This document shows, piece after piece, positions 50,781-62,874 of a stretch of 64,000 bases of DNA; position 1 is the stretch's first letter; every line of letters starts with the position of its first letter. The translations under genes and the position numbers were made by a program. The notes under the pieces are model-generated. The model saw only the letters and a list, made by a program, of their open reading frames with translations, was not told the origin of the DNA and made no database searches. The stretch is from an uncultured Roseburia sp. (GTDB lineage Bacteria; Bacillota; Clostridia; Lachnospirales; Lachnospiraceae). The DNA is taken from assembly GCA_947564465.1 (NCBI GenBank), contig CANOCV010000007.1:1-64000 (forward strand), read 5' to 3'.

Positions 50781-51407
50781 TCACTGAACAGAGAGCGTAT
50801 CTTGAGGATTCTCATCCTCAAATTCAAATACGCACTTTTCAAACACGTTAATCACATGCGTGTCCTGATATTTATCGTAGCGCTTATGCCTGCTTCCGTA
50901 ATTCAAGTGCATATGTCCGTGAAGAAAATATTTCGGACGGTACTTCTCCATCAACGTCCGAAACACCCGAAAGCCCTGATGCGGCAGATCGCGTCCGTCA
51001 TTTAACTGATAGGCGGGCGCATGCGTCACCAATATATCAAAGCCGCGTTTTCTGAACAGCTGAAAACGCAGCTTTGAAGCTCGCTGCTTCATCTGCCACT
51101 CCGTATACTGATGTGTCCCCGAGCTGTAACGCATCGAACCGCCAAGCCCTAAAATTCTAACACCCTTGTGAACATATATCCGATCTTCAATGCAGACACA
51201 GCCCTCCGGCGGAAATTTGTCGTACTTTTCATCATGGTTCCCATGTACATATAATACCGGCGCAGAGGAAAACGTCACCAAAAAGGAGAGATAGTGAGGG
51301 TCCAGATCACCGCAGGAGATAATCAAATCGATATCCTCAAGCTTACTCTTATCAAAATATTCCCACAAATATTTAGATTCTTCATCCGAAATTGCCAATA
51401 TCTTCAT
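50781..51407 (-). CDS. Calcineurin-like metallophosphoesterase
   Basis: A 208-residue phosphoesterase. Metal ligands are seen in LAISDEESKY, IISCGDLDPHYL, VHGNHDEKYD, ILVTHAP and LHGHMHLNYG, the complete D-x-H/GDxx/GNHD/GHxH set, except that the first motif reads SDEE instead of D-x-H. Substrate unknown. It starts nine bases from the preceding stop of the BMP-fusion gene, suggesting cotranscription. Confidence 0.88.
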   Translation of the reverse strand: MKILAISDEESKYLWEYFDKSKLEDIDLIISCGDLDPHYLSFLVTFSSAPVLYVHGNHDEKYDKFPPEGCVCIEDRIYVHKGVRILGLGGSMRYSSGTHQYTEWQMKQRASKLRFQLFRKRGFDILVTHAPAYQLNDGRDLPHQGFRVFRTLMEKYRPKYFLHGHMHLNYGSRHKRYDKYQDTHVINVFEKCVFEFEDENPQDTLSVQ

Positions 51408-51415
51408 TGTATAAA

Positions 51416-53329
51416 CTATCCCTCGTTTTTCTTTACTCCCTGCTGCTTGATCACAGGCTCCGCCTGTTCCTTCAGCTCTTCCTTATCCGGAATGCTTCCG
51501 ATTACATTCTCGGCCAGCCAGTCCATCGTCATAATCTCCTCGGAGGTAAGGCTACGCTTTGGATCATCCGATACCACACCTGTCTGAGAATATAGTATGC
51601 CCGAAAACGGGTTAAATACCTCCGTACTGATCGCTGTTTTCAAAAGACCCGCCAAACGCTTTTGTCCAATTGGCAAATACTTGGAAAATACTACGTCAAT
51701 CACACCCTCGGCCATTCCCCACCAGTAGTTTATGGCTTTCTTGGCAGAAGGGTCGTCGTCATACTTCCATGTTCCGTCCATAATCGCGCAAATCAGCTGC
51801 TCATAAAATTTCCCCCAGTGCCAAAGCGGCATGCCAAAATTCCTTGGCATCCCCTCTTCAATATGATAGATACCGAAAAACCGGGACGCTTCCTCCGGGA
51901 TTACCATATCTCTTCCCGATACACAGGAAGATCCTGTTTCCCGGATACGCTCCTCAATCTCCATCTCCTCTTTGGCAGAAGACCACTCCAGATAAACCTT
52001 TGCCCTTGGATTAATCAGCTTTGCTCCCAACGCAAATGCATTGATATTGGCAATTGTACCGTAAATCGGATAATCGGCAATATACGTAAGCCTATTGTTC
52101 TCGGCCATTGCTCCGGCAATCGCACCCATTAAAAATTTGGCCTCATACATTCTTGAATAATACGTCCGAATATACCGGTGGGAGGTGTTTAAGGAGCAAT
52201 TCAAAATCCTGACCTTCGGGTTGGCAATTGCCGCCTTCACACTCGCCTGCACAAAAGCCGGCGTCGTCGTAAAAATGATATCACAGCCCGCATTTATGGC
52301 ATCCTCAATCATGGCATCCACATTTTCCTGCATTCCGTTTTCATAGCAAACCGTATGTACCTCCTCCGGAAATGTCTCCTCCAGATGAAGCCGGCCAAGC
52401 TCATGGGCATACGTCCAGGCAGAGGTTCCAGGCGTTTTTTCATAAACAAACGCAATATTCAACTTCCGCGGCGACTGCAGATGCAAAATACTAAGCGGCG
52501 ACTTCTTTTTCTGATTTGGCTTCATTTTCAAATCAATTTCCGATTCCTCCCCAAGAAGCACAAACTCTTCCCAGCTTTTCGCAATCAGCTCCTGCATCTC
52601 ACTGGTGGTTTTCCCGTCAATCACATCATAACCGTACAGCGTTATAAATGATAAAAACGCATCGCCCGGCGTAATATCCAGCTTATCTCCGCCTTTTGCC
52701 TTATATTCAGAGGTAAACCTCGTATAAATGGAACTGAATTCTAACAGCTCTTCTTCCGTCCACTTCTCCTGCGGTTCTTTTCCCACTGCCTCCTGCAGCT
52801 TGGCATACCCGCCCTCCTGTGAAAACCAAATATAATTAATCGGCGCCAGGCGGTAGAAATCCAGATATTCATAATAAATCTTATTTTCTTTTTCCTCGGT
52901 GCGCTTTGGTACGATACGGATCACATCTCCCAAAACGGAAACGGCTCCGGTATATTTCATCACACTGACGCGCTTATTTCCCTCCACTACATAAAATTTG
53001 TACATATATTCATAAACTTTAATCGGATCACGAATGCCCTTCTCCACATGAGAGTCCAACAACTTTACCCACTTAGTGGCAAATTCGGTGTTCTCCTGCA
53101 ATATCGGCATAAAATTTCCCGCAAACGAGCTGCTCCTTGCAGCAGTTTTCGTTCCCTCTATCTGCTCTATGGGAATCTGCACCTGTCCAATCGGCACCTC
53201 GGAGTAAGATCCCCTCGCCGGCAAAATATCATCCAGGACCTGCAAAATCGGTCTTTCTCCCCGCAGCATCCTCATCTGATAATCCTTCTTCCCTAATTTT
53301 AGTGCTTTTTTATAATCTTCTTTTCCCAT
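51416..53329 (-). CDS. Cytosolic fusion of a ParB/Srx-like domain and a BMP-type binding protein
   Basis: About 637 residues, with no signal peptide or lipobox. Residues 40-160 show a ParB-like core (QVQIPIEQIEGTK, RDPIKVYEYMYKFYVVEGNKRVSVMKYTGA, where YVVEG-x-x-R-V is the motif). A helical linker follows, then from about 300 a BMP/PnrA-type purine-nucleoside-binding fold (LNIAFVYEKTPGTSAWTYAHELGR, IFTTTPAFVQASVKAA, NCSLNTSHRYIRTYYSRMYEAKFLMGAIAG). Location inside the cell argues against transport; nucleoside sensing or regulation is a guess. AGGAGG lies before ATG 53329. Confidence 0.75.
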   Translation of the reverse strand: MGKEDYKKALKLGKKDYQMRMLRGERPILQVLDDILPARGSYSEVPIGQVQIPIEQIEGTKTAARSSSFAGNFMPILQENTEFATKWVKLLDSHVEKGIRDPIKVYEYMYKFYVVEGNKRVSVMKYTGAVSVLGDVIRIVPKRTEEKENKIYYEYLDFYRLAPINYIWFSQEGGYAKLQEAVGKEPQEKWTEEELLEFSSIYTRFTSEYKAKGGDKLDITPGDAFLSFITLYGYDVIDGKTTSEMQELIAKSWEEFVLLGEESEIDLKMKPNQKKKSPLSILHLQSPRKLNIAFVYEKTPGTSAWTYAHELGRLHLEETFPEEVHTVCYENGMQENVDAMIEDAINAGCDIIFTTTPAFVQASVKAAIANPKVRILNCSLNTSHRYIRTYYSRMYEAKFLMGAIAGAMAENNRLTYIADYPIYGTIANINAFALGAKLINPRAKVYLEWSSAKEEMEIEERIRETGSSCVSGRDMVIPEEASRFFGIYHIEEGMPRNFGMPLWHWGKFYEQLICAIMDGTWKYDDDPSAKKAINYWWGMAEGVIDVVFSKYLPIGQKRLAGLLKTAISTEVFNPFSGILYSQTGVVSDDPKRSLTSEEIMTMDWLAENVIGSIPDKEELKEQAEPVIKQQGVKKNEG

Positions 53330-53610
53330 AATATCCTCCTGTTCCATCTCGCACCTATTCTACCATAAACTTCTTCTATAATCTATACCCCTCTTTCATA
53401 TAGCTTACCATTCACTGCTATTCATGGCCGGATGGAGCTTATAACAACAATTCGGAGCGATATGTACAGTTTTTCTACACAAAAAGCGGGCGAATCCATT
53501 TTATCACAGGCGAGGACAACACGACCTCTAATTGTCTGCTCAAATGTACATTCGTCCACTTTCCGGCCTTCTGTAACTATCACAGGATGAATCCGACTCC
53601 CCAGACATTC
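53330..53610. other. Gap without an assignable gene
   Basis: About 280 bases upstream of the BMP fusion. On plus and minus there are open readings of 60-75 codons (plus around 53430-53650, minus around 53430-53600), but neither has a start with a ribosome-binding site or a family I recognise. Either may be a relic. Confidence 0.3.
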
Positions 53611-53973: not shown

Positions 53974-54152
53974 ATTTCCTCTCTTTCCGCCGCAAGCCGT
54001 ATTCCCTTCCACAATAGCGGCATATAATCTCCATGCTGTTTAGTTATAATATAAACAAAAAAAATTCTCTGCGGAAGTCCCGTTTTGTTCAGCACTTTAT
54101 ACTCACGGGTTATAACTGTGATTCAATTTTTACAAAGATTATTATATATCTT

Positions 54153-54815
54153 TTATATTTTACCATCTGCCATATAAATAATACGATCGGCATACTCTGC
54201 CACCTTTTTATCATGCGTAACCATAATGATTGTCAATCCCTGACCATTTAGAGTTTTTAACAATTGCATGATCTTTATCCCATTTTCCTCATCCAGACTT
54301 CCGGTCGGTTCATCTGCCAAAAGAACCTCCGGCTGATTAGAAATCGCCCTTGCAATGGCAACACGCTGCTGCTCACCGCCCGACAGCTGAAAAGGTCTGC
54401 CTGTTTCCCTTCCGGCAAGCCCCACCATTTCCAAAAGCTGCTTCGCTCTTTTTTTCCGCTGACCGGACTTTGCTCCTGCATAGCCCAAAGGCAACGAAAT
54501 ATTATCTATAATGCTAAATTCAGGCAGCAAATGAAATGCCTGAAACACAAATCCCACCTTTTTGTTGCGGAAATGTGCCAGCTGCCTCCTGTTAAAGTCG
54601 GATACTTGCATCCCCTCAAACAGGTAACTTCCTCGGTCTGCCAGATCCATTCCTCCCATAATATTCAACAGGGTACTCTTTCCACATCCCGAACGCCCCA
54701 TAATAGCAATAAATTCCCCTTTATTTACTTCCAAGCATACGTCCTTTAAAACTTCATTTTTCGCATCCCCGGACTGGTATGTTTTTACCAAATTTTTTAT
54801 TGTGATAATCTGCAT
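54153..54815 (-). CDS. MacB/LolD-type ABC transporter ATPase
   Basis: A 220-residue ATPase of the type that pairs with FtsX-like permeases. Walker A GRSGCGKST (39-47), Q-loop FVFQAFHLLPEFS, signature QLSGGEQQR, Walker B VLLADEPTGSLDE, H-loop IIMVTHDKK. The FQAFHLLP form is the LolD/MacB group that performs mechanotransmission instead of solute transport. It is last in an operon with two permeases (7 bases from the nearer) and so forms a heterodimeric MacB-like complex, which often exports or gives tolerance to antimicrobial peptides. Confidence 0.95.
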   Translation of the reverse strand: MQIITIKNLVKTYQSGDAKNEVLKDVCLEVNKGEFIAIMGRSGCGKSTLLNIMGGMDLADRGSYLFEGMQVSDFNRRQLAHFRNKKVGFVFQAFHLLPEFSIIDNISLPLGYAGAKSGQRKKRAKQLLEMVGLAGRETGRPFQLSGGEQQRVAIARAISNQPEVLLADEPTGSLDEENGIKIMQLLKTLNGQGLTIIMVTHDKKVAEYADRIIYMADGKI

Positions 54816-54821
54816 ATTGTC

Positions 54822-56081
54822 CTACAACTCCTTTAATACCTTGATCGGTTCCCTGTTTTTGACCCCGGCTAATGCAATAAGACAGCAACCTGCTGATGTG
54901 ACCAGACAGAATACCAGCACATATACTACACAAATCGGATAAAATGCTATCTCCGTAGCAATGCCCGAGAAACCTGACGCAGCCACAGCCGAAAACAATA
55001 CCCCCAGACCTCCGCCTGTGAGAAAAAGCAGAAACACCTCCCCAAATAACTCTAAGAAATTCCTGACTTCGGTAGCCCCAAAAGCAAAGGCGACAGCCGC
55101 CGTTTTTTTTCTTTTCTGCAGCGCAATCAATAATATTCCTATCATGCTTACCGTAACAATGGCAAGCGTAACAATAGACACTGCAAGGAACATTCTAACT
55201 AAATTATCCTGCTCCTGTGCCCTCTTTTCCATTTTAAGGTATTCATCCGAAACATAAATAATATATCTTCCATCTTGCATGTCTGATATTTTATTGAGCA
55301 ATTCAGGAAGCAGGCTTGACTGATCTTCCATGTTTTTATTCTGTACCATGAATATAACATCGTCCGTCTCTTCTCCTGCATTAAAATCATCCATAAAGTT
55401 TATCGGGCAGATAACACAGTCTTCCACAAGTATCTGCTCTGTGATTCCGGAGGTCCGGTCTATATATTCTGTTTTTTCCCCCGCCGGTATCTCTTTGTAT
55501 TCTACGCCGCAGCCTTTTGAAAACCATATCTTGCCGTGCCTCGCCATAAATTCATTTGAACCCCGCATGGCTGCCTTAACGGTTCCCTCCTCGGCCCTTT
55601 CCATTTTACTCAGTGATTTGTACGCCCTTCTTCCCGCATATGCCTGATCGTTTTCCCTCGCAAACCCAAAGCATTTCTCAAACATGTTATCATTCATAAA
55701 AAGATACCATACTTCCGCCGTTGACAGCTCCCCCTGCTTCCCTTCAAAAAAACAAGTCTCCAAAACCACGACTGTATAATACAGATTCAGCTCCTTTTCA
55801 TATTCCCGCTCCAATTGCAGATATCCATCGTAATCTATGACCAGACGGGAAGCATTTTCATATTCCGCTTCTTTATCACGCTCTCCTACTTCCCATTGAA
55901 TCGGTATCATCCCTTCCGCCATCTCCTGCCTGTAACGCGCTAACACTTCCCGATTTGTAAATGTAAGATTCAGACAGGTTACCAAAACGAATATTCCCAC
56001 AGCCATTTCAAAGATAATCAGCCAATATATTCTCCGGTTATTCCACATCTGTTTCCAAACACGATATAACAAATACCTCAC
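54822..56081 (-). CDS. FtsX-like ABC permease (second)
   Basis: A 419-residue FtsX-type permease with one N-terminal helix (IYWLIIFEMAVGIFVLVT), a large extracytoplasmic domain (45-280) containing several cysteines, and three C-terminal helices (FLAVSIVTLAIVTVSMIGIL, FLELFGEVFLLFL, ICVVYVLVFCL). MGIL/RKKTAAVAFAFGATE resembles the RRREIGILKAIGAT motif. Start is GTG inside the GTGA overlap with the previous permease, with GGAGG upstream. Confidence 0.88.
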   Translation of the reverse strand: MRYLLYRVWKQMWNNRRIYWLIIFEMAVGIFVLVTCLNLTFTNREVLARYRQEMAEGMIPIQWEVGERDKEAEYENASRLVIDYDGYLQLEREYEKELNLYYTVVVLETCFFEGKQGELSTAEVWYLFMNDNMFEKCFGFARENDQAYAGRRAYKSLSKMERAEEGTVKAAMRGSNEFMARHGKIWFSKGCGVEYKEIPAGEKTEYIDRTSGITEQILVEDCVICPINFMDDFNAGEETDDVIFMVQNKNMEDQSSLLPELLNKISDMQDGRYIIYVSDEYLKMEKRAQEQDNLVRMFLAVSIVTLAIVTVSMIGILLIALQKRKKTAAVAFAFGATEVRNFLELFGEVFLLFLTGGGLGVLFSAVAASGFSGIATEIAFYPICVVYVLVFCLVTSAGCCLIALAGVKNREPIKVLKEL

Positions 56082-57187
56082 CAGTTGACCTCCCCTTCTA
56101 TCAGCTCTCTAATCTCCCTTTTCATTTTAAGAAAAGAAACGCTGCTCATAAAGAGGATAAGCACGATCCCCATACCCAAAATCTGCCCCAAAACAGAAAT
56201 TCCATATTCCACTCCGAATGGTAAGACCTTCTCTATCGGCAGCATCAGAATTACCCCGTCAAGCCCAAAAGCGCACGCCACAAGTATTATATTTTGAATC
56301 GCTTCCTCCAAAAACAACCGTCCGTCGGTTGCCCCTAAAGCTTTTTGTATGCCGTATAAATGCCGTTCCCCCGACGCCTTCCCCAATGTTATAATCCATA
56401 TGCCAAGCGCGGCAAAAACAAATACCGCGCTCCCGACCATCAGCCACTTTTTATGATTTTCCCGATAGCTTGGCTCCATCACTTCACGCTCCTCCTCTTC
56501 CGCGCTCATAACGGAATACACGTCTTCTATGCCGCTTTTCGCCAGCTGTCCTTTCAACGCTTCTGTCTCAAACTGCTTAAGGGGCATAAACAAGATGCGG
56601 TGCTGCATACTTCTTCCCCCCATAATACCGTCCATCTCGCAATAAGGAAGAATGATATCTGCATACACCCTGGTAGCCCGTATAATCCCTGCCACAAGAT
56701 ACTTCTGTCCGTTCAGAGTCACATAATCCCCTGCTCTTGCCCCCTTTAACGCAAGTCTGGAGCTTTCCTTTAATATACAAATATTTTTATCCGCTTTAAA
56801 ATCCTCGTCTGCAAACATCCTTCCTTCTGTCAGAAGATACGGCGTAACTTGAAAAAAGCCCGGCGACACGCCTCCCACGGAAGAAATCAAATCCTCCTTC
56901 CACCCTGCTGTCATCTGAAAGACTGATTCATACATTATTTTGTCTGCTTTTGTATTTTCCAGGATTCTCCTTTCCATTTCGCTATCTATAAAACCACTAA
57001 AGCAGCCTACTGCTAATATATCTGAACCGTTTGGATAAAGGTTATCCCGGTATAATACATTTAAAGAGTAGATTTCACCGAGTACATAAATAGGACATAA
57101 AAACCCGGCTGCAATTGATAAAATCAGGACAAGGCTGATACCCTTGTTATATACAATCCTGTTCCATACGCTTTTTAGGGCCAACAT
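56078..57187 (-). CDS. FtsX-like ABC permease (first)
   Basis: A 369-residue permease with the same layout: N-terminal helix (ISLVLILSIAAGFLCPIYV), extracytoplasmic domain, then helices near 255-355. RHLYGIQKALGATDGRLF is the FtsX/MacB G-x-x-K-A-x-G-A motif. It overlaps the second permease by four bases, so a heterodimer is likely. A 12-base gap separates it from the lipoprotein gene. Confidence 0.88.
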   Translation of the reverse strand: MLALKSVWNRIVYNKGISLVLILSIAAGFLCPIYVLGEIYSLNVLYRDNLYPNGSDILAVGCFSGFIDSEMERRILENTKADKIMYESVFQMTAGWKEDLISSVGGVSPGFFQVTPYLLTEGRMFADEDFKADKNICILKESSRLALKGARAGDYVTLNGQKYLVAGIIRATRVYADIILPYCEMDGIMGGRSMQHRILFMPLKQFETEALKGQLAKSGIEDVYSVMSAEEEEREVMEPSYRENHKKWLMVGSAVFVFAALGIWIITLGKASGERHLYGIQKALGATDGRLFLEEAIQNIILVACAFGLDGVILMLPIEKVLPFGVEYGISVLGQILGMGIVLILFMSSVSFLKMKREIRELIEGEVNW

Positions 57188-57199
57188 TGATTCATCCCC

Positions 57200-58147
57200 C
57201 TACTTATAGATTCTGTATAATTTATTCTCATTTATGTCAGATAAATAGAATACATCCTTTTCATCAATATACGCCAGGTACATTCCATTGTTTATGTTTT
57301 CCAGATGAAAAAGAGACTCCGCATTTTCTCCGTCTTTATCCATTCTAACAAGCGTGCCCCATGCGGCGGAAAGCATAAAGAGCTCCTCTTTTACAAAACA
57401 AAAATCATTTGGTGTCATCGCGTTGGGAAGCTGGCTGATTTTCTCCATCTTTTTATCTTTTACCTTATATAAGCTGTTGCTGCCCGACTGCCCGATTTCC
57501 TCCCCGCCTTCCTCAAATAATTCCATGGTATCCGCTGCATACACCTCGCCGTCACACTCCGCCAGATACCCTACAAACGGCGTTTCCAAATGACTTACTT
57601 CTCCATCCTCTACAAAATACAGGAAGGAATCCAGTCTCCCTGTGCTGTCCGTGCTCACATAGATAATACCGTCCCCATCGACCGCGATATCAATATAAAA
57701 ATGATCTCCCTGCTTATGTACCAAGGCTCCAAGCGCAATAGACTCCACAAACTCAAAATCGCCATCCAATATCTGTATCCTGTCATTTCCCGCGTCCAAT
57801 ACATAGAGTCTGTCGTCATGCACCGTTAAACCTGTCGGCTGCATAAATTCTACTTGCCCGCCCCCCAAGGCGCCGATACATTCCAAAAGCTCCCCGTCCG
57901 GATTCAATACAAACAGACAGTGTTTTTCTTTATCGCTAACCACAATTTTATCCTGAAACCGGCAAATGCCCGCCGGCTGCTCCATATCCTCTAACGTGCA
58001 CTCTTCAATCTGATACCCCGTCTCCGGGGCAGCTGGAATTACCTCCGCATCGTACTGCCATCCCTGCTTGGGCCTCTCCTGCCCGCACGCACAATTGCAT
58101 AAAACACATAAAATCAAAAACGCAACCAAAAATTTTTTTCTTATCAT
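57200..58147 (-). CDS. NHL/6-bladed beta-propeller lipoprotein
   Basis: A 315-residue lipoprotein with lipobox LCNCAC (cysteine about 21). About six repeats follow the pattern D-x-(L/I)-Y-V-x-D-x-x-x-x-R/(K)-(I/L)-x-x-x-D (YVLDAGNDRIQILD; FYLSDINENKLYRIY), a NHL/BF3164-like propeller. Such lipoproteins occur beside small secreted cysteine-bearing peptides in Bacteroides (NVEALA loci), and the same combination is seen here in a Firmicute. Expected to display a binding surface outside the membrane. AGGAG before ATG. Confidence 0.85.
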   Translation of the reverse strand: MIRKKFLVAFLILCVLCNCACGQERPKQGWQYDAEVIPAAPETGYQIEECTLEDMEQPAGICRFQDKIVVSDKEKHCLFVLNPDGELLECIGALGGGQVEFMQPTGLTVHDDRLYVLDAGNDRIQILDGDFEFVESIALGALVHKQGDHFYIDIAVDGDGIIYVSTDSTGRLDSFLYFVEDGEVSHLETPFVGYLAECDGEVYAADTMELFEEGGEEIGQSGSNSLYKVKDKKMEKISQLPNAMTPNDFCFVKEELFMLSAAWGTLVRMDKDGENAESLFHLENINNGMYLAYIDEKDVFYLSDINENKLYRIYK

Positions 58148-58234
58148 AGCTTATGCTCCTCTCTCTAACAAAAACCAATCCTGCTTTCAGGCTAATATAC
58201 CAAAGTCAAACCCTGCTAAATTCTCGTTTCTTTT

Positions 58235-58513
58235 TTAACAGCATCCGTCATTTATTGTCCTTGTTTGGTACTTTACACTAGATTCTCCTGTCATTTCTGT
58301 AACACAAGTTTTCTTATCTCTTATGTCCATATACCTATAAGGGATGCCTCCGCCAGCATAGTTACAAATCGGTGTTGAACAATAAGTTTTTAATATTTTA
58401 TCCTGATGCCAATCGGTGCACTTTGCATCCACTTGCGCAACTCCACCAAAGAGACCAAAGAACATTGCCGCCGCCATCGTTGTAATTACACCTTTTTTCA
58501 TTAATTTATTCAT
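58235..58513 (-). CDS. Secreted six-cysteine small peptide, candidate bacteriocin or signal
   Basis: A 92-residue protein with a textbook Sec signal (MNKLMKKG, then hydrophobic VITTMAAAMFFGLFGG, cleavage after VDA near residue 30). The mature part of about 62 residues has cysteines at 32, 45, 50, 70, 91 and 92, an even number that can form three disulfides, and otherwise polar sequence (KCTDWHQDK, NYAGGGIPYRYMD). AAGGAG lies seven bases before the ATG. The gene upstream codes for a double thioredoxin protein, which suggests oxidative folding. No double-glycine leader, so not a class IIb type. Function is inferred from context only. Confidence 0.8.
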   Translation of the reverse strand: MNKLMKKGVITTMAAAMFFGLFGGVAQVDAKCTDWHQDKILKTYCSTPICNYAGGGIPYRYMDIRDKKTCVTEMTGESSVKYQTRTINDGCC

Positions 58514-58546
58514 AATTCTTCTCCTTTCTCTTCGCCTGAAAGCAGA

Positions 58547-59422
58547 CTATTGGTTTACTAATAAAGATTTCAGTTCTGTTACAGGTGTTTCACCAATAAC
58601 ACTTATTTTATTATCCTTACCAAATATCAAAAAACTTGGATACCACTTAATGCCATATGTATGTTTAAAAATTGCATCCTTATCCCTGACATGTGAATTA
58701 TCTACATCATCATACTTATAGATTTTCACCACATCATATATTTCTTCAACTTCCTTCGATTCAACAATGGGATCGGCGGCTTCACAATCTTTGCATCCCT
58801 GCATCGCAAAATATATCATCTTCTTTTTGTCAGAATCCCCAAAAAAGTTTTTCAAAATGTATTCATTTGCATTTTCTTTAAGTTTATCTTCAGATACAAT
58901 TTTCATATCAACCAACTTTTCTACCAATAACAATGAGTCAGTAGTAAAAAATTTCACTTTAGCATTGTTATCCAGTACGTAAAAAGTCGGCGTAGTGGTA
59001 GAAAGTTTATAATCTACCATCTCATAACAAATCTCTCTGTCAATATTATTTTGCTCAATTAATTTCTCGGAAATTTTATCTACCCATAAAAAAATGTAAT
59101 TGATATCTTCTTCCCCAAATACGCTCTTTAGCCTGTCATAATTGTCAAGTATTTCAGCACATCCATGACAAGTTGATGATAAGTAAAAGACAACTCGGTA
59201 TCCATCGGTATCCGGTAACCCTTCCAAAACTTCTCCATCTATCGTTTTTACTTTAAATCCCTGCATATAGTCATCATACTGCATAGACATAGCTTCATAA
59301 CTCTTCACATCACCCCCATCGCTCTTCATAAACAAAATACCAGATACTATCATAATTAAAATAACCGCGATAAGCGCACTTACCGTCCCAATATATAGTT
59401 TTAATGATACCTGTTTCTTCAT
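58547..59422 (-). CDS. Membrane protein with two thioredoxin-like domains (CHGC and CKDC)
   Basis: About 291 residues: one helix (TVSALIAVILIMIVSGILF), then two extracytoplasmic thioredoxin folds. The first (about 60-175) has STCHGCAE, the second (about 200-290) QGCKDCEA. WYPSFLIFG fits the second domain, with Y-P as cis-Pro. No helical pump segment as in DsbB or CcdA is present. First gene of the peptide operon; the likely role is thiol oxidation or isomerisation of the following six-cysteine peptide. Start 59422 is preferred to one 42 bases upstream. Confidence 0.85.
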   Translation of the reverse strand: MKKQVSLKLYIGTVSALIAVILIMIVSGILFMKSDGGDVKSYEAMSMQYDDYMQGFKVKTIDGEVLEGLPDTDGYRVVFYLSSTCHGCAEILDNYDRLKSVFGEEDINYIFLWVDKISEKLIEQNNIDREICYEMVDYKLSTTTPTFYVLDNNAKVKFFTTDSLLLVEKLVDMKIVSEDKLKENANEYILKNFFGDSDKKKMIYFAMQGCKDCEAADPIVESKEVEEIYDVVKIYKYDDVDNSHVRDKDAIFKHTYGIKWYPSFLIFGKDNKISVIGETPVTELKSLLVNQ

Positions 59423-59449
59423 ACCTTTTACTTCCCCCTTATTTCGGTA

Positions 59450-59478
59450 TTGTATTTTTTTCACACATTTGATATAAT
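59450..59478 (+). promoter_or_regulatory. Possible promoter of the kinase/regulator genes
   Basis: TTGTAT (59450-59455) and TATAAT (59473-59478) with 17 bases between them, 100 bases before the kinase ATG, in the AT-rich divergent region. The -35 is poor. I saw no convincing LytTR repeat pair; only weak GTT-centred elements at about 59532 and 59553 (21 bp apart). Confidence 0.35.
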
Positions 59479-59577
59479 TTGTTTACACTTATTTTACAGT
59501 GTTTTTTTTTTGATAACCATTTTTTTCCTATTCGTTGCTTTTTTCGACATGAACGTTTTCCGGGGGAGGAGAGCCTT

Positions 59578-60411
59578 ATGAAAAATGTACTTTTTTTGTT
59601 GTACACTATACTATATTTCAAATCTGATATTCCGGCAGGATACTCCACAAAAGTTTTCACCTATCATGGAGTAATTCTTGGCATTTTTCTATTATCTATC
59701 CTGATATTATTTTATCTTTTATACAAGCTGCTTCAAGAAAATCACAAATTAAAAGCTCACCAAAAAGAACAAAATACGTTGCAAGACTACGCTAAAAAGA
59801 TGGAGGATTTCTACGAAGAATTTCGCATTTTTCGACATGATTATAAAAACATTCTTTCCACACTTACCTACTACATAGAAACAGAGGATCTCCCTCAACT
59901 GAAAATATATTTTGAAGAAAAAATAGTGCCGTATGGAGAAACCTTATTTGCCAACAAATATGTTCTCGGGAAATTACATATGATAAGGATTCCCTCTATT
60001 AAAAGCATACTTTACTCCAAGTTGGCGGCATCTCTCAATAAAGGTTTGTCATTAAACTTAGAATTAACGGAACCGTTAACTGATATTTTTATAGATGAAC
60101 TAACGTTGTCTAATATTCTTGGAATTATACTCGACAATGCTATGGAAGCTGCCATTGTAACATCAGAAAAGCGTATTTCTATAGCCGTAATTTGCACAGA
60201 AGAGAGCCTCCTCTTTTCTTTTACGAACAGCACACTTCCGATAGAAGTCCCTGTTTCTAAATTATACGAAAAAGGATATACCACAAAAGAGAACCATGAT
60301 GGCCTGGGATTGTACACCGTAAAAAAAATCAGTGACAGTTTAGACAATGTTTCCTATATTGCACAATACAATGGACTGTTTCATCAAATACTTGAAATTA
60401 TGCGAGGATAA
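59578..60411 (+). CDS. GHKL-type sensor histidine kinase with short membrane part
   Basis: About 277 residues. The N-terminus has only two hydrophobic stretches (FLLYTILYF and ILGIFLLSILILFYLLY), while AgrC/ComD proteins have six or seven helices. A coiled linker follows (LQENHKLKAHQKEQ), then FRIFRHDYKNILSTL with the phosphoacceptor histidine and a GHKL ATPase (ILGIILDNAMEAAI N box, DGLGLYTVKKI G box). The trimmed sensor suggests the signal is relayed by another membrane protein or sensed from within the bilayer. ATG 59578 has GGGGAGGAG. Confidence 0.88.
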   Translation: MKNVLFLLYTILYFKSDIPAGYSTKVFTYHGVILGIFLLSILILFYLLYKLLQENHKLKAHQKEQNTLQDYAKKMEDFYEEFRIFRHDYKNILSTLTYYIETEDLPQLKIYFEEKIVPYGETLFANKYVLGKLHMIRIPSIKSILYSKLAASLNKGLSLNLELTEPLTDIFIDELTLSNILGIILDNAMEAAIVTSEKRISIAVICTEESLLFSFTNSTLPIEVPVSKLYEKGYTTKENHDGLGLYTVKKISDSLDNVSYIAQYNGLFHQILEIMRG

Positions 60412-60416
60412 CGAAT

Positions 60417-61199
60417 ATGATACGTATTTACTTATGTGATGATGAGCCGTTCTGGCTGAATCGGCTGAACAAAGCCATAGCTGATTATCTGGTAGAAAGT
60501 GACTGGGAACTGACGATAGAATATCAATCCACATCGCCAGAAAATCTTTTGCAGCACCTAAAAAAACATACTCCTTCTCATGGTATCTATTTTTTAGATA
60601 TAGATTTCAAAACTGTCATAAATGGTTTAGACATTGCAAAACAGATTCGCATTTTAGATACATATGCCTCCATTATCTTCATTACCTCTCATGACGAAAT
60701 GGTTATGGAAACTTTCCGCTTGAAACTATCTGTTTTAGATTATATTATCAAAGATAATTCCTCACTTGAAGTGCAGGTTCATCAATGCCTGGCACATATT
60801 GAAAAATACTATTTGAAGCAAACCGAAAAGGATTCCTCCACCATAACGATTCGCATCGCCGGCTCATTTTACACTATCCCGACATATGAAATCTATTATG
60901 TAGAATCCATCAAAAACACTCATAAAATATGCATGCATTTGCAATCAACACTTTATCACTTTTCCGGCTCCCTATCTTCTGTCAAAGAACATCTGGGAAG
61001 CGATTTTGTACAATGTCATAAAAACTGCCTTGTCAATATCCGTCATATTGTAGAACTAAGCGCCTCAAATCACCAAATATTGTTGGACAATGGAGAATAC
61101 TGTTTTTCCTCCGTTAGGGAATGGAAATATTTAATACAAAAATACCAGTCCGCACACAGCATCTTAACATCCGTGCTGCCGACGCTGAGCCTGCCGTAA
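60417..61199 (+). CDS. LytTR-family response regulator
   Basis: A 260-residue regulator. The receiver domain (1-125) has acid residues CDDE and the phosphoacceptor aspartate in YFLDIDF, plus ITSHDEM and the lysine in DYIIKDN. The LytTR DNA-binding domain (145-240) shows IYYVESIKNTHKICMHL, VQCHKNCLVNIRHI and LDNGEYCFSS. AgrA/VirR-like. Six bases after the kinase and coupled to it. It probably controls the divergent peptide operon. It converges on the flavodoxin gene with only six bases between stops, so no terminator can lie there. Confidence 0.92.
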   Translation: MIRIYLCDDEPFWLNRLNKAIADYLVESDWELTIEYQSTSPENLLQHLKKHTPSHGIYFLDIDFKTVINGLDIAKQIRILDTYASIIFITSHDEMVMETFRLKLSVLDYIIKDNSSLEVQVHQCLAHIEKYYLKQTEKDSSTITIRIAGSFYTIPTYEIYYVESIKNTHKICMHLQSTLYHFSGSLSSVKEHLGSDFVQCHKNCLVNIRHIVELSASNHQILLDNGEYCFSSVREWKYLIQKYQSAHSILTSVLPTLSLP

Positions 61200-61204
61200 A
61201 AGGA

Positions 61205-62002
61205 TTATATCATCCCATCGGCGGTGGCAGTTAAAACCGTGCCGCCCTCACTGCCTTCCGAAAGCTCTGCTCTTGCATTAATCCCAAGTCCCTGCGCCCA
61301 ATTCACAATTGTTTCCTCACTTTCCGCCACATCATTGCGAGATAAAACCAGTTCATTCTCCATCATCAACGCCCCCGGCTGCAGCCGTGAGATGGTATCC
61401 ACCGTGCGGGAAGCCCCACTGCCACCATGAGTGATAAACGGAATAATCGTCTTTGCTCCAAAATCATATTCCTCTAAAAAAGTGTACAAGGGCTGAGGCA
61501 TATCACCCCACCAGTTAGGAAAACCAAGGAATACATACTCGTATTTGTCAAAATCCTCCACATGTGCGGCAAGCTTTGGACGAAGCCCGGCATCCTGCTC
61601 ATCCGCCGCCTGATCCACTAACGGTTCATGGTCAAGCGGATACGGTTCCTGCGTCTCAATGCGAAACAGATCGCCGCCGACGGTCTGTTGGATCAGCTTT
61701 GCCACATACTCCGTACTGCCCAGCTTTTCCCCCTCTTTGACGACGATACTGGCGCCGGCAATGGCTTCCACGCCATCCGTATCCACATCCTCCGGTACGG
61801 AAAAGTATGCAATCAGTATGTTAGCGTTTGAAGCTTTAGCCTCCGCCGTATTTTCTGCATTACTTTCTTCTGCGGGTACGGCCGCACTTTCCCGGTTTAC
61901 ATCCGACTCCGTAGCAACGGAAGCATTCCGCCCTTCTGTGCCGCAGGCCGCAAAACAAAACGCCAGAATTGCCACTAATTGCAGACATATATTTCGCTTC
62001 AT
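61205..62002 (-). CDS. Lipid-anchored flavodoxin
   Basis: A 265-residue protein with lipobox FCFAAC (cysteine at 20), an Ala/Glu/Ser-rich linker to residue 60, then a flavodoxin domain (NILIAYFSVPEDVD, GSTEYVAKLIQQTVGGDLFRIE, VFLGFPNWWGDMPQPLYTFLEEYDF, PFITHGGSG). The flavin phosphate loop after IAYFS lacks the usual T-G-x-T run, as in Flavodoxin_4-type members. Flavodoxins on the outer membrane face are unusual and could take part in extracytoplasmic electron transfer or flavin-linked redox. Confidence 0.85.
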   Translation of the reverse strand: MKRNICLQLVAILAFCFAACGTEGRNASVATESDVNRESAAVPAEESNAENTAEAKASNANILIAYFSVPEDVDTDGVEAIAGASIVVKEGEKLGSTEYVAKLIQQTVGGDLFRIETQEPYPLDHEPLVDQAADEQDAGLRPKLAAHVEDFDKYEYVFLGFPNWWGDMPQPLYTFLEEYDFGAKTIIPFITHGGSGASRTVDTISRLQPGALMMENELVLSRNDVAESEETIVNWAQGLGINARAELSEGSEGGTVLTATADGMI

Positions 62003-62023
62003 ATTGTTTCCCTCTTCCTTTCT

Positions 62024-62874
62024 CTACTTTACATCCTCAACACGAATCTGTATAACAGGGCGTACGCCATCACAAATCGTCACTTTGTAGCCTTTGTAGT
62101 AAATCTTTCCGGATGAAAGAATATTTGCCGCATACTTTCTGTTCACTCCTGCCGTTCTAGGCCACCAACATCCCATTCCTGTGTCCCGTGTCAGTGCCCC
62201 CATAGCTTTGGCATAATCCGTCGTTTTTGCTTTTCTTGCATTATTTGACGTAAACCCATATGATGCCTTTGCCGCCTCTTGCGCAGACAGAAGATACACC
62301 TTGTCTTTAACACTTTTTCCTCCGGATGTCCCATACTTTTTGTTCTTTGATGTAGAAACGGAGACCTTTGCCAGCAGTTTTCGTTCCGATGCGGAGAAAG
62401 CTGTACGATAAAATTCCCCATTCAGCCATTTTCTCATATAACTGCCTGCCCAACTCACAGCCTTCAACTTATTATGGTACTGCTGATTATCTATAATCTC
62501 ATCTGCCAACAATATGTACCTTCCATTTAGCTCCCCAATGATTCTCCATTTTATAGGCGTACACTCAAAATAGTGGTAACCACTGTCCTCCCACTGATAA
62601 AATTTCTCCCCGCTTCCGATATAGCGGGCATCTGACTTCTTTATTCTCTTATATTTTACCCATTTACAACAGCATAGCCGTTCTTATTATAGGAAGCAGT
62701 TTTAATTTTCTCTGTTAATTTCTTCCCCACAATTTCTTCCTTGGGATAGCTTCCCATATAAATAATATCTCCTTGTTTTTTCACTGCAGCCTCACAGTCC
62801 ATAATCAAAAAATGTGTCCCCCAAATTAGAGCCGCCGCTAAAACTAATAATTTTAAATATCCTCTTTTCACCAT
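62024..62874 (-). pseudogene. DUF6273 exported protein interrupted by a one-base frameshift
   Basis: Two frames make one protein. Residues 1-72 run from ATG 62874 (AAGGAGG upstream): signal helix (LKLLVLAAALIWGTHFLI), then GDIIYMGSYPKEEI and NKNGYAVVNG, ending at TAA 62656-62658. One base to the side, the minus strand continues with VKYKRIKKSDARYIGSGEKF to the clear DUF6273 part (WAGSYMRKWLNGEFYRTAFS, ARKAKTTDYAKAMG, GVRPVIQIRV). The break is at the C-run 62659-62661, where one extra base would restore AVVNGVKYKR. A decayed gene, sequencing error or slippage site are all possible. Confidence 0.7.

What the first reader, a model, noticed from the sequence alone, without database searches (positions are those of the whole stretch)
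58235..58513. A Sec-exported 62-residue mature peptide with three potential disulfides
A textbook signal peptide, an Ala-rich cleavage site, an even cysteine count with two vicinal cysteines at the very C-terminus, and a strong ribosome-binding site. The vicinal CC end is unusual. It matches no bacteriocin leader type I know (no double-glycine).
Basis: partly seen in the sequence, partly recalled or inferred. Interest (0 to 1): 0.62.

Follow-up and report, generated by a model that had tools for sequence, protein, structure and literature searches.

The report
Exported cysteine peptide with folding operon
A gut bacterium carries a small exported peptide, probably held together by three disulfide bonds, next to genes that look built to fold it and perhaps to protect the cell from it; it founds a small, fast-changing and previously unnamed peptide family that may be a new type of bacterial antimicrobial.

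Summary
The reported ORF is real: 58513..58235 (-), 92 aa, strong RBS, Sec-type signal, six mature cysteines ending in CC. It is gene 2 of a six-gene operon: two-domain thioredoxin (CxxC + CxxC), peptide, NHL/6-bladed propeller, two FtsX/MacB permeases, ATPase. An AgrC/AgrA-like GHKL/LytTR pair is divergent. I found 11 relatives in five other Clostridia genomes, beside the same kinds of genes; one genome carries five. Nothing in Pfam, NCBIfam, PHROGs, PADLOC or PDB matches. The cysteines are the conserved skeleton: nine members keep all six, and two separate lineages have exactly four, which predicts C1-C4 plus C2/C3 paired to the final CC. Between two close species the first 25 signal-peptide residues are identical while the mature part is only 60% identical (dN 0.265 versus 0.02-0.10 in the other operon genes). 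Extra peptide copies alternate with extra FtsX permease copies. Best reading: a secreted, enzymatically oxidised peptide of bacteriocin-like logic with ABC self-protection (about 45%). Activity, immunity and the disulfides themselves are untested. New family, known kind of arrangement.

The parts
58235..58513 (-). Exported six-Cys 'CC-end' peptide precursor, 92 aa (signal 1-30, mature 31-92)
58424..58513 (-). Sec signal peptide (cleavage predicted after VDA30; inferred)
   Evidence: sequence; residues 1-25 identical in G003
58238..58423 (-). Mature peptide, 62 aa, Cys 32, 45, 50, 70, 91, 92; local divergence peak against G003
58514..58546 (-). RBS/intergenic AGAAAGGAGAAGAATT, identical in G003
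58547..59422 (-). Membrane-anchored protein with two thioredoxin-like domains, CHGC and CKDC, both with cis-Pro (TPTF, YPSF)
   Evidence: Pfam Thioredoxin_2 3.1e-06; motif conservation
57200..58147 (-). NHL / 6-bladed beta-propeller protein, probable lipoprotein (window lipobox imperfect, relatives' clean)
   Evidence: NHL 8.9e-12, DUF5128 2.2e-09
56078..57187 (-). FtsX/MacB-type ABC permease a
   Evidence: MacB_PCD 9.7e-12
54822..56081 (-). FtsX-type ABC permease b
   Evidence: FtsX 5.3e-10
54153..54815 (-). MacB/LolD/DarD/Lcn972-like ABC ATPase
   Evidence: ABC_tran 2.8e-34; DarD, MacB, LolD, L_ocin_972_ABC 224-242 bits, all below cut-off
59578..60411 (+). GHKL histidine kinase; only the cytoplasmic part is AgrC-like; short N-terminal membrane part
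   Evidence: HATPase_c_5 1.3e-11; AgrC model matched at 144-399 only
60417..61199 (+). LytTR response regulator, AgrA-like
   Evidence: LytTR 5.6e-17
54152..61149 (.). Accessory block: the continuous stretch shared with G003; G005 of the same genus has the flank but not the block

Best explanation
The ORF makes a Sec-exported peptide that the adjacent membrane-anchored two-domain thioredoxin oxidises or proofreads outside the cell, giving a compact fold with three disulfides (C1-C4, and C2/C3 joined to the C-terminal CC). The peptide is released or surface-held and acts on neighbouring, probably related, bacteria (bacteriocin-like). The FtsX/MacB-type ABC, with the propeller protein as the extracellular binding partner, keeps the producer's own envelope clear of it. 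Shown: ORF, operon, family, cysteine pattern, fast mature part, peptide/permease co-duplication, patchy presence. Inferred from sequence: export, oxidation by the thioredoxin. Inferred only from arrangement: antagonistic activity and ABC-mediated self-protection.
For: Same-strand operon thioredoxin, peptide, propeller, FtsX, FtsX, ATPase. Peptide family found beside thioredoxin and propeller genes in G003, G363, G707, G709 and, in another Clostridia family, G543; G543 peptide detected by the profile at E 2.8e-07 among 131 frames of its locus. Both CxxC motifs and both cis-Pro invariant in six thioredoxins. Mature cysteines occur only in even numbers: nine six-Cys members, two four-Cys members lacking C1 and C4, one lacking one mid-chain Cys and one of the CC. 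Mature part dN 0.265, omega 0.46 against 0.09-0.19 for neighbours (Fisher p 1.5e-4, pooled); first 25 residues unchanged. In G363/G707 extra peptides alternate with extra FtsXb permeases. Accessory in its genus. Published parallels: PedC, a putative thiol-disulfide oxidoreductase that raises pediocin potency (PMC4919988); Lcn972-type Sec-exported bacteriocins with membrane/ABC genes (PMC11796350); actifensin operons with several peptide genes and ABC genes (PMC6989792).
Against: No activity data. Mature omega is 0.46, not above 1, so positive selection is not shown; recombination could explain part of the divergence, since dS also jumps from 0.17 to 0.58 at the signal/mature boundary. Charge ranges from -4 to +12, unlike a simple cationic antimicrobial. 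G543 has thioredoxin, peptide and propeller but no ABC nearby, so the ABC cannot be the only self-protection. An NHL propeller is not a known bacteriocin-immunity protein; no paper was found linking the two.
Confidence: 0.45

Rival explanations
1. Signalling peptide: the oxidised peptide is a pheromone sensed by the adjacent GHKL/LytTR pair (or via the propeller and ABC, Bce-like), with fast mature evolution reflecting specificity groups.
For: Divergent AgrC/AgrA-like pair next to the operon in the window and in G003; secreted peptide with conserved signal and variable mature part.
Against: No such two-component pair at the G363, G707, G709 or G543 loci; an ECF-sigma-like gene lies by two of them. 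No AgrB/AgrD; the kinase lacks the multi-span AgrC sensor region. Large six-Cys peptides are not typical Gram-positive pheromones.
Confidence: 0.2
2. Surface redox or metal module: the thioredoxin, Cys-rich peptide and propeller form an extracytoplasmic thiol relay or metal-binding patch, the peptide being a carrier rather than a weapon.
For: Thioredoxin, peptide and propeller are the minimal set in G543; Trx and NHL domains occur fused in NHLRC2 (PMC6107167, abstract); vicinal CC could bind metal.
Against: A carrier should be conserved, but the mature part is the fastest-changing segment; cysteines are lost in twos as structural disulfides would be; multiple diverged paralogues in one array.
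Confidence: 0.17
3. Host- or niche-facing surface peptide (adhesin-like or structural), diversified by niche or immune pressure, with the ABC handling envelope stress or lipoprotein traffic.
For: The nearest named relative is an uncultured Roseburia MAG; patchy presence and fast mature part would fit.
Against: No sorting or anchoring motif in the precursor (sequence); peptide/permease co-duplication is better explained by matched specificity.
Confidence: 0.13

Closest known systems
Lactococcin 972 family (lcn972; streptococcin B scbABC)
   Same: Sec-exported small peptide followed by membrane protein(s) and a related ABC ATPase; ATPase scores 224 bits with TIGR03608
   Different: Peptide does not match the family; ATPase below the 254.85-bit cut-off and better matched by DarD/MacB/LolD; Lcn972 operons have three genes, here there are also thioredoxin and propeller
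Pediocin-type class II operons with PedC-like thiol-disulfide oxidoreductase (also BdbA/sublancin)
   Same: Dedicated thioredoxin-fold protein encoded with a disulfide-bonded exported peptide
   Different: Sec signal instead of double-glycine leader; two-domain membrane-anchored thioredoxin, no match to a PedC family model; no peptidase-type exporter
Actifensins / bacterial defensins / laterosporulins
   Same: Six-Cys secreted peptides, several copies per operon, ABC genes nearby, degenerate mature sequence
   Different: Spacing CX12CX4CX19CX20CC does not fit CX(2,18)CX(3)CX(2,12)CX(4,17)CXC; no sequence match
Agr quorum sensing (AgrBDCA)
   Same: Adjacent GHKL/LytTR pair with AgrC/AgrA-like domains
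   Different: No AgrB, no AgrD-like peptide, kinase matches only the cytoplasmic part of AgrC, pair absent at relatives' loci
NVEALA peptides of Bacteroidota
   Same: Small Sec-exported Cys-containing peptides; association with propeller proteins is recalled, not tested
   Different: No PF14055 match in this genome or peptide
NHLRC2-like Trx-NHL proteins
   Same: Thioredoxin and NHL propeller working together
   Different: Separate genes here, with an exported Cys peptide between them

Membership tests
Lactococcin 972 family | Peptide matches the Lcn972 family model | tested here: not met
   no Pfam or NCBIfam family for the window peptide, nor for the eight aligned members at E<=0.1 apart from one weak unrelated match
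Lactococcin 972 family | Lcn972-type ABC ATPase above TIGR03608 cut-off | tested here: not met
   224.3 bits against 254.85
Class IIa/pediocin-like bacteriocin | Double-glycine leader (and YGNGV box, from general knowledge) | tested here: not met
   precursor sequence
Class IIa/pediocin-like bacteriocin | Dedicated thiol-disulfide oxidoreductase in the operon (some members) | tested here: met
   two-domain thioredoxin with two CxxC; oxidoreductase activity itself not tested
Bacterial cis-defensin | Regex CX(2,18)CX(3)CX(2,12)CX(4,17)CXC (PMC11561630) | tested here: not met
   spacing CX12CX4CX19CX20CC read from the sequence; regex
Bacterial cis-defensin | CS-alpha-beta/CSH fold | tested here: inconclusive
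   AlphaFold2 with two sequences, pLDDT 33
AgrD-type autoinducer | AgrB processing enzyme next to the peptide | tested here: not met
   none among the annotated neighbours
NVEALA | PF14055 match | tested here: not met
Bacteriocin (functional class) | Kills or inhibits related bacteria | not testable with these tools
   needs purified peptide
Bacteriocin (functional class) | Linked self-immunity genes | not testable with these tools
   candidates FtsX/ATPase and propeller only by position and co-duplication

The most novel reading that the evidence does not exclude
A previously undescribed class of Sec-exported, enzymatically oxidised antagonistic peptides in Clostridia, in which a two-domain thioredoxin folds the peptide and an NHL propeller (not a classical immunity protein) neutralises it at the producer's surface, with matched FtsX permeases added in Lachnospiraceae and diversified peptide-permease arrays.
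Probability: 0.3. Interest if true: 0.75.

Novelty: new variant of a known kind. Interest (0 to 1): 0.52.

Why it matters
Strict gut anaerobes are not expected to make disulfides readily outside the cell; a peptide family that travels with its own two-CxxC thioredoxin gives a clear case to study dedicated oxidative folding there. If it is antagonistic it adds a new peptide class and a possible new self-protection protein (NHL propeller) for Roseburia-like commensals. The family also gives testable disulfide predictions from natural four-Cys variants.

Tried and rejected
AlphaFold2 on the mature peptide (window plus one relative): pLDDT 33, unusable, so no fold search was run. PDB sequence search: no credible match for the peptide; the peptide-profile hits to designed TIM barrels, Cas9 and others at E 0.0055 and above were taken as chance. 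Weak search hits in G012, G464 and G596 were inspected and rejected as unrelated frames; the other weak hits were not opened. Viral contigs: no thioredoxin relative; the peptide alignment was too diverse to scan. Plasmids: no peptide or thioredoxin match. Rfam: no RNA in the operon. Simple sigma-70 scan barely above shuffles, not used. Thioredoxin relatives in G618, G450, G557 and G620 lie in other gene contexts without a recognisable peptide-propeller pair. NVEALA: no literature held and no match. Ordinary cationic antimicrobial: charge not conserved.

Full report
Observation. The reading frame 58513..58235 (-) encodes MNKLMKKGVITTMAAAMFFGLFGGVAQVDA / KCTDWHQDKILKTYCSTPICNYAGGGIPYRYMDIRDKKTCVTEMTGESSVKYQTRTINDGCC (the slash marks the predicted cleavage). 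It has a strong Shine-Dalgarno sequence, a Sec-type signal with V-x-A cleavage, and six cysteines in a 62-residue mature part, the last two being the C-terminal residues. A rule-based scan found no other such frame in the window and none in 40 shuffles.

Context. It is gene 2 of a minus-strand operon: a membrane-anchored protein with two thioredoxin-like domains (59422..58547), the peptide, an NHL/DUF5128-type propeller (58147..57200), two FtsX-type permeases (57187..56078, 56081..54822) and an ABC ATPase (54815..54153). Divergently lie a GHKL kinase and a LytTR regulator (59578..61199 +), AgrC/AgrA-like in their cytoplasmic domains only. The continuous block shared with the nearest relative G003 (record CANDCP010000002.1, an uncultured Roseburia MAG) is 54152-61149, and G005 of the same genus has the flanking genes 50781-53340 but not the block, so the module is accessory. 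Only two of eight genus members carry the thioredoxin.

Family. No Pfam, NCBIfam, PHROG, PADLOC or PDB match for the peptide. Searching 397 genomes of the family plus selected relatives and other Clostridia gave relatives in G003, G363, G707, G709 and G543. Contexts: G363 has four six-Cys peptides on contigs C107 and C20, probably one locus split by the assembly (the third lies near the end of C107, the fourth at the start of C20), interleaved with propeller, thioredoxin and FtsX genes, with the ATPase after the last permease; G707 has three in one array, with the second peptide-propeller pair of G363 absent. In the arrays the added unit is a peptide followed by an FtsXb-type permease, which suggests matched specificity. 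G363 (contig C31) and G709 carry a second type with two propellers, thioredoxin, two permeases and, in G363, the ATPase (the ATPase was not recovered in the G709 stretch). G543, of another Clostridia family, has only thioredoxin, peptide and propeller. In G706 the thioredoxin is followed directly by a propeller at a contig end and no peptide was seen. The minimal conserved set is therefore thioredoxin, peptide and propeller; the ABC is a Lachnospiraceae addition or a G543 loss.

Cysteines. Nine members have six mature cysteines in the order C..W..C(R/S)(T/S)PxC...C...GCC. The C31-type peptides have four, lacking C1 and C4. The G543 peptide also has four, keeping C1, one mid-chain Cys (C3 in the profile alignment), C4 and one Cys at the end (MAFFT and HMMER agree on the mid-chain Cys as C3, but the region is short). 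Loss in twos predicts disulfides C1-C4 and C2/C3 with C5/C6; which of C5/C6 pairs with which is not resolved. This is inference, not measured.

Evolution. Window against G003: residues 1-25 identical; mature part 60% identical with dN 0.265, dS 0.578, omega 0.46. Operon genes: thioredoxin 0.024/0.170 (0.14), propeller 0.065/0.424 (0.15), permeases 0.091/0.487 and 0.098/0.543 (0.19, 0.18), ATPase 0.096/1.10 (0.09). The nonsynonymous excess of the mature part over pooled operon genes has Fisher p 1.5e-4. Nucleotide identity is 93-100% over the thioredoxin 3' half and signal sequence, drops to 75-83% across the mature part and recovers to 87-95% in the propeller 5' half. dS also rises at the boundary, so recombination or cassette exchange may contribute; omega stays below 1, so positive selection is not demonstrated.

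Thioredoxin. In six relatives both CxxC motifs (CHGC/CKTC/CAGC/CGGC and CKDC/CMDC/CGDC), a third Cys (C132) and the cis-Pro of each domain are invariant. It is thus a plausible dedicated oxidoreductase. PedC, shown to raise pediocin potency and thought to form its disulfides, is a functional parallel (PMC4919988); it is not the same family by the models searched.

Mechanism. Best supported: Sec export, oxidation by the two-domain thioredoxin, and an extracellular antagonistic role with self-protection by the FtsX/MacB ABC and/or the propeller (0.45). Parallels are Lcn972-type operons, where immunity roles of the membrane/ABC genes are presumed but not proven (PMC11796350), and actifensin operons with multiple peptide genes and ABC genes (PMC6989792). 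Rivals: pheromone for the adjacent kinase (0.2), weakened because the pair is not at the other loci; redox/metal relay (0.17), weakened by the fast mature part; surface or host-facing peptide (0.13). Charges from -4 to +12 argue against a generic cationic antimicrobial.

Membership. Not Lcn972, not class IIa, not a bacterial cis-defensin by the published spacing, not AgrD, not NVEALA; each failed at least one tested defining feature. It can work like a bacteriocin system without being a member of a named family. I rate it a new peptide family in a new variant of a known kind of arrangement.

Limits. The rarity claim rests on sampled genomes (1,968 genome searches in total, many overlapping), six-frame search sensitivity and fragmented MAGs. 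Structure prediction failed for lack of depth. The association of NVEALA peptides with propellers is recalled, not tested.

Noticed in passing
window 58423-58513 versus L009 7659-7749: Sharp identity step at the signal/mature boundary between two species (about 97-100% upstream, 75-83% in the mature part), possibly a recombination breakpoint that swaps mature cassettes.
   Followed up: partly
L008 3535-10146 and L034 401-679 (G363): Four diverged paralogues of the peptide alternating with propeller and FtsX genes on two contigs that probably abut; their signal peptides carry a CC in the hydrophobic core.
   Followed up: yes
L039 11496-11729 and L044 14456-14689: Second, four-Cys type of the peptide with two tandem propellers; an ECF-sigma-like gene and a roughly 500-aa protein with one apparent membrane span lie next to both loci.
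   Followed up: partly
L058 7458-8594 (G543): Minimal thioredoxin-peptide-propeller trio in another Clostridia family; the mature peptide is very basic (+12) and no ABC genes are adjacent.
   Followed up: partly
window 59578-59700: Short N-terminal membrane part of the kinase with a small loop (KSDIPAGYSTKVFTYHG) that differs in G003 (KSDIPAKCSTEFFACYG); could be peptide-specific sensing.
   Followed up: no
window 59423-59577: Divergent promoter region with an 11-bp spaced pair CACTGTAAAAT/AAGTGTAAACA; only one copy is evident in G003.
   Followed up: no
L059, L060, L061, L062: Distant relatives of the thioredoxin in other Clostridia; in L060-L062 a second exported protein follows it (in L060 with a visible CxxC-type motif), in carbohydrate-gene contexts.
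   Followed up: no
window 61205-62512: Exported flavodoxin-like protein (Flavodoxin_4) next to a DUF6273 protein, just outside the block.
   Followed up: no
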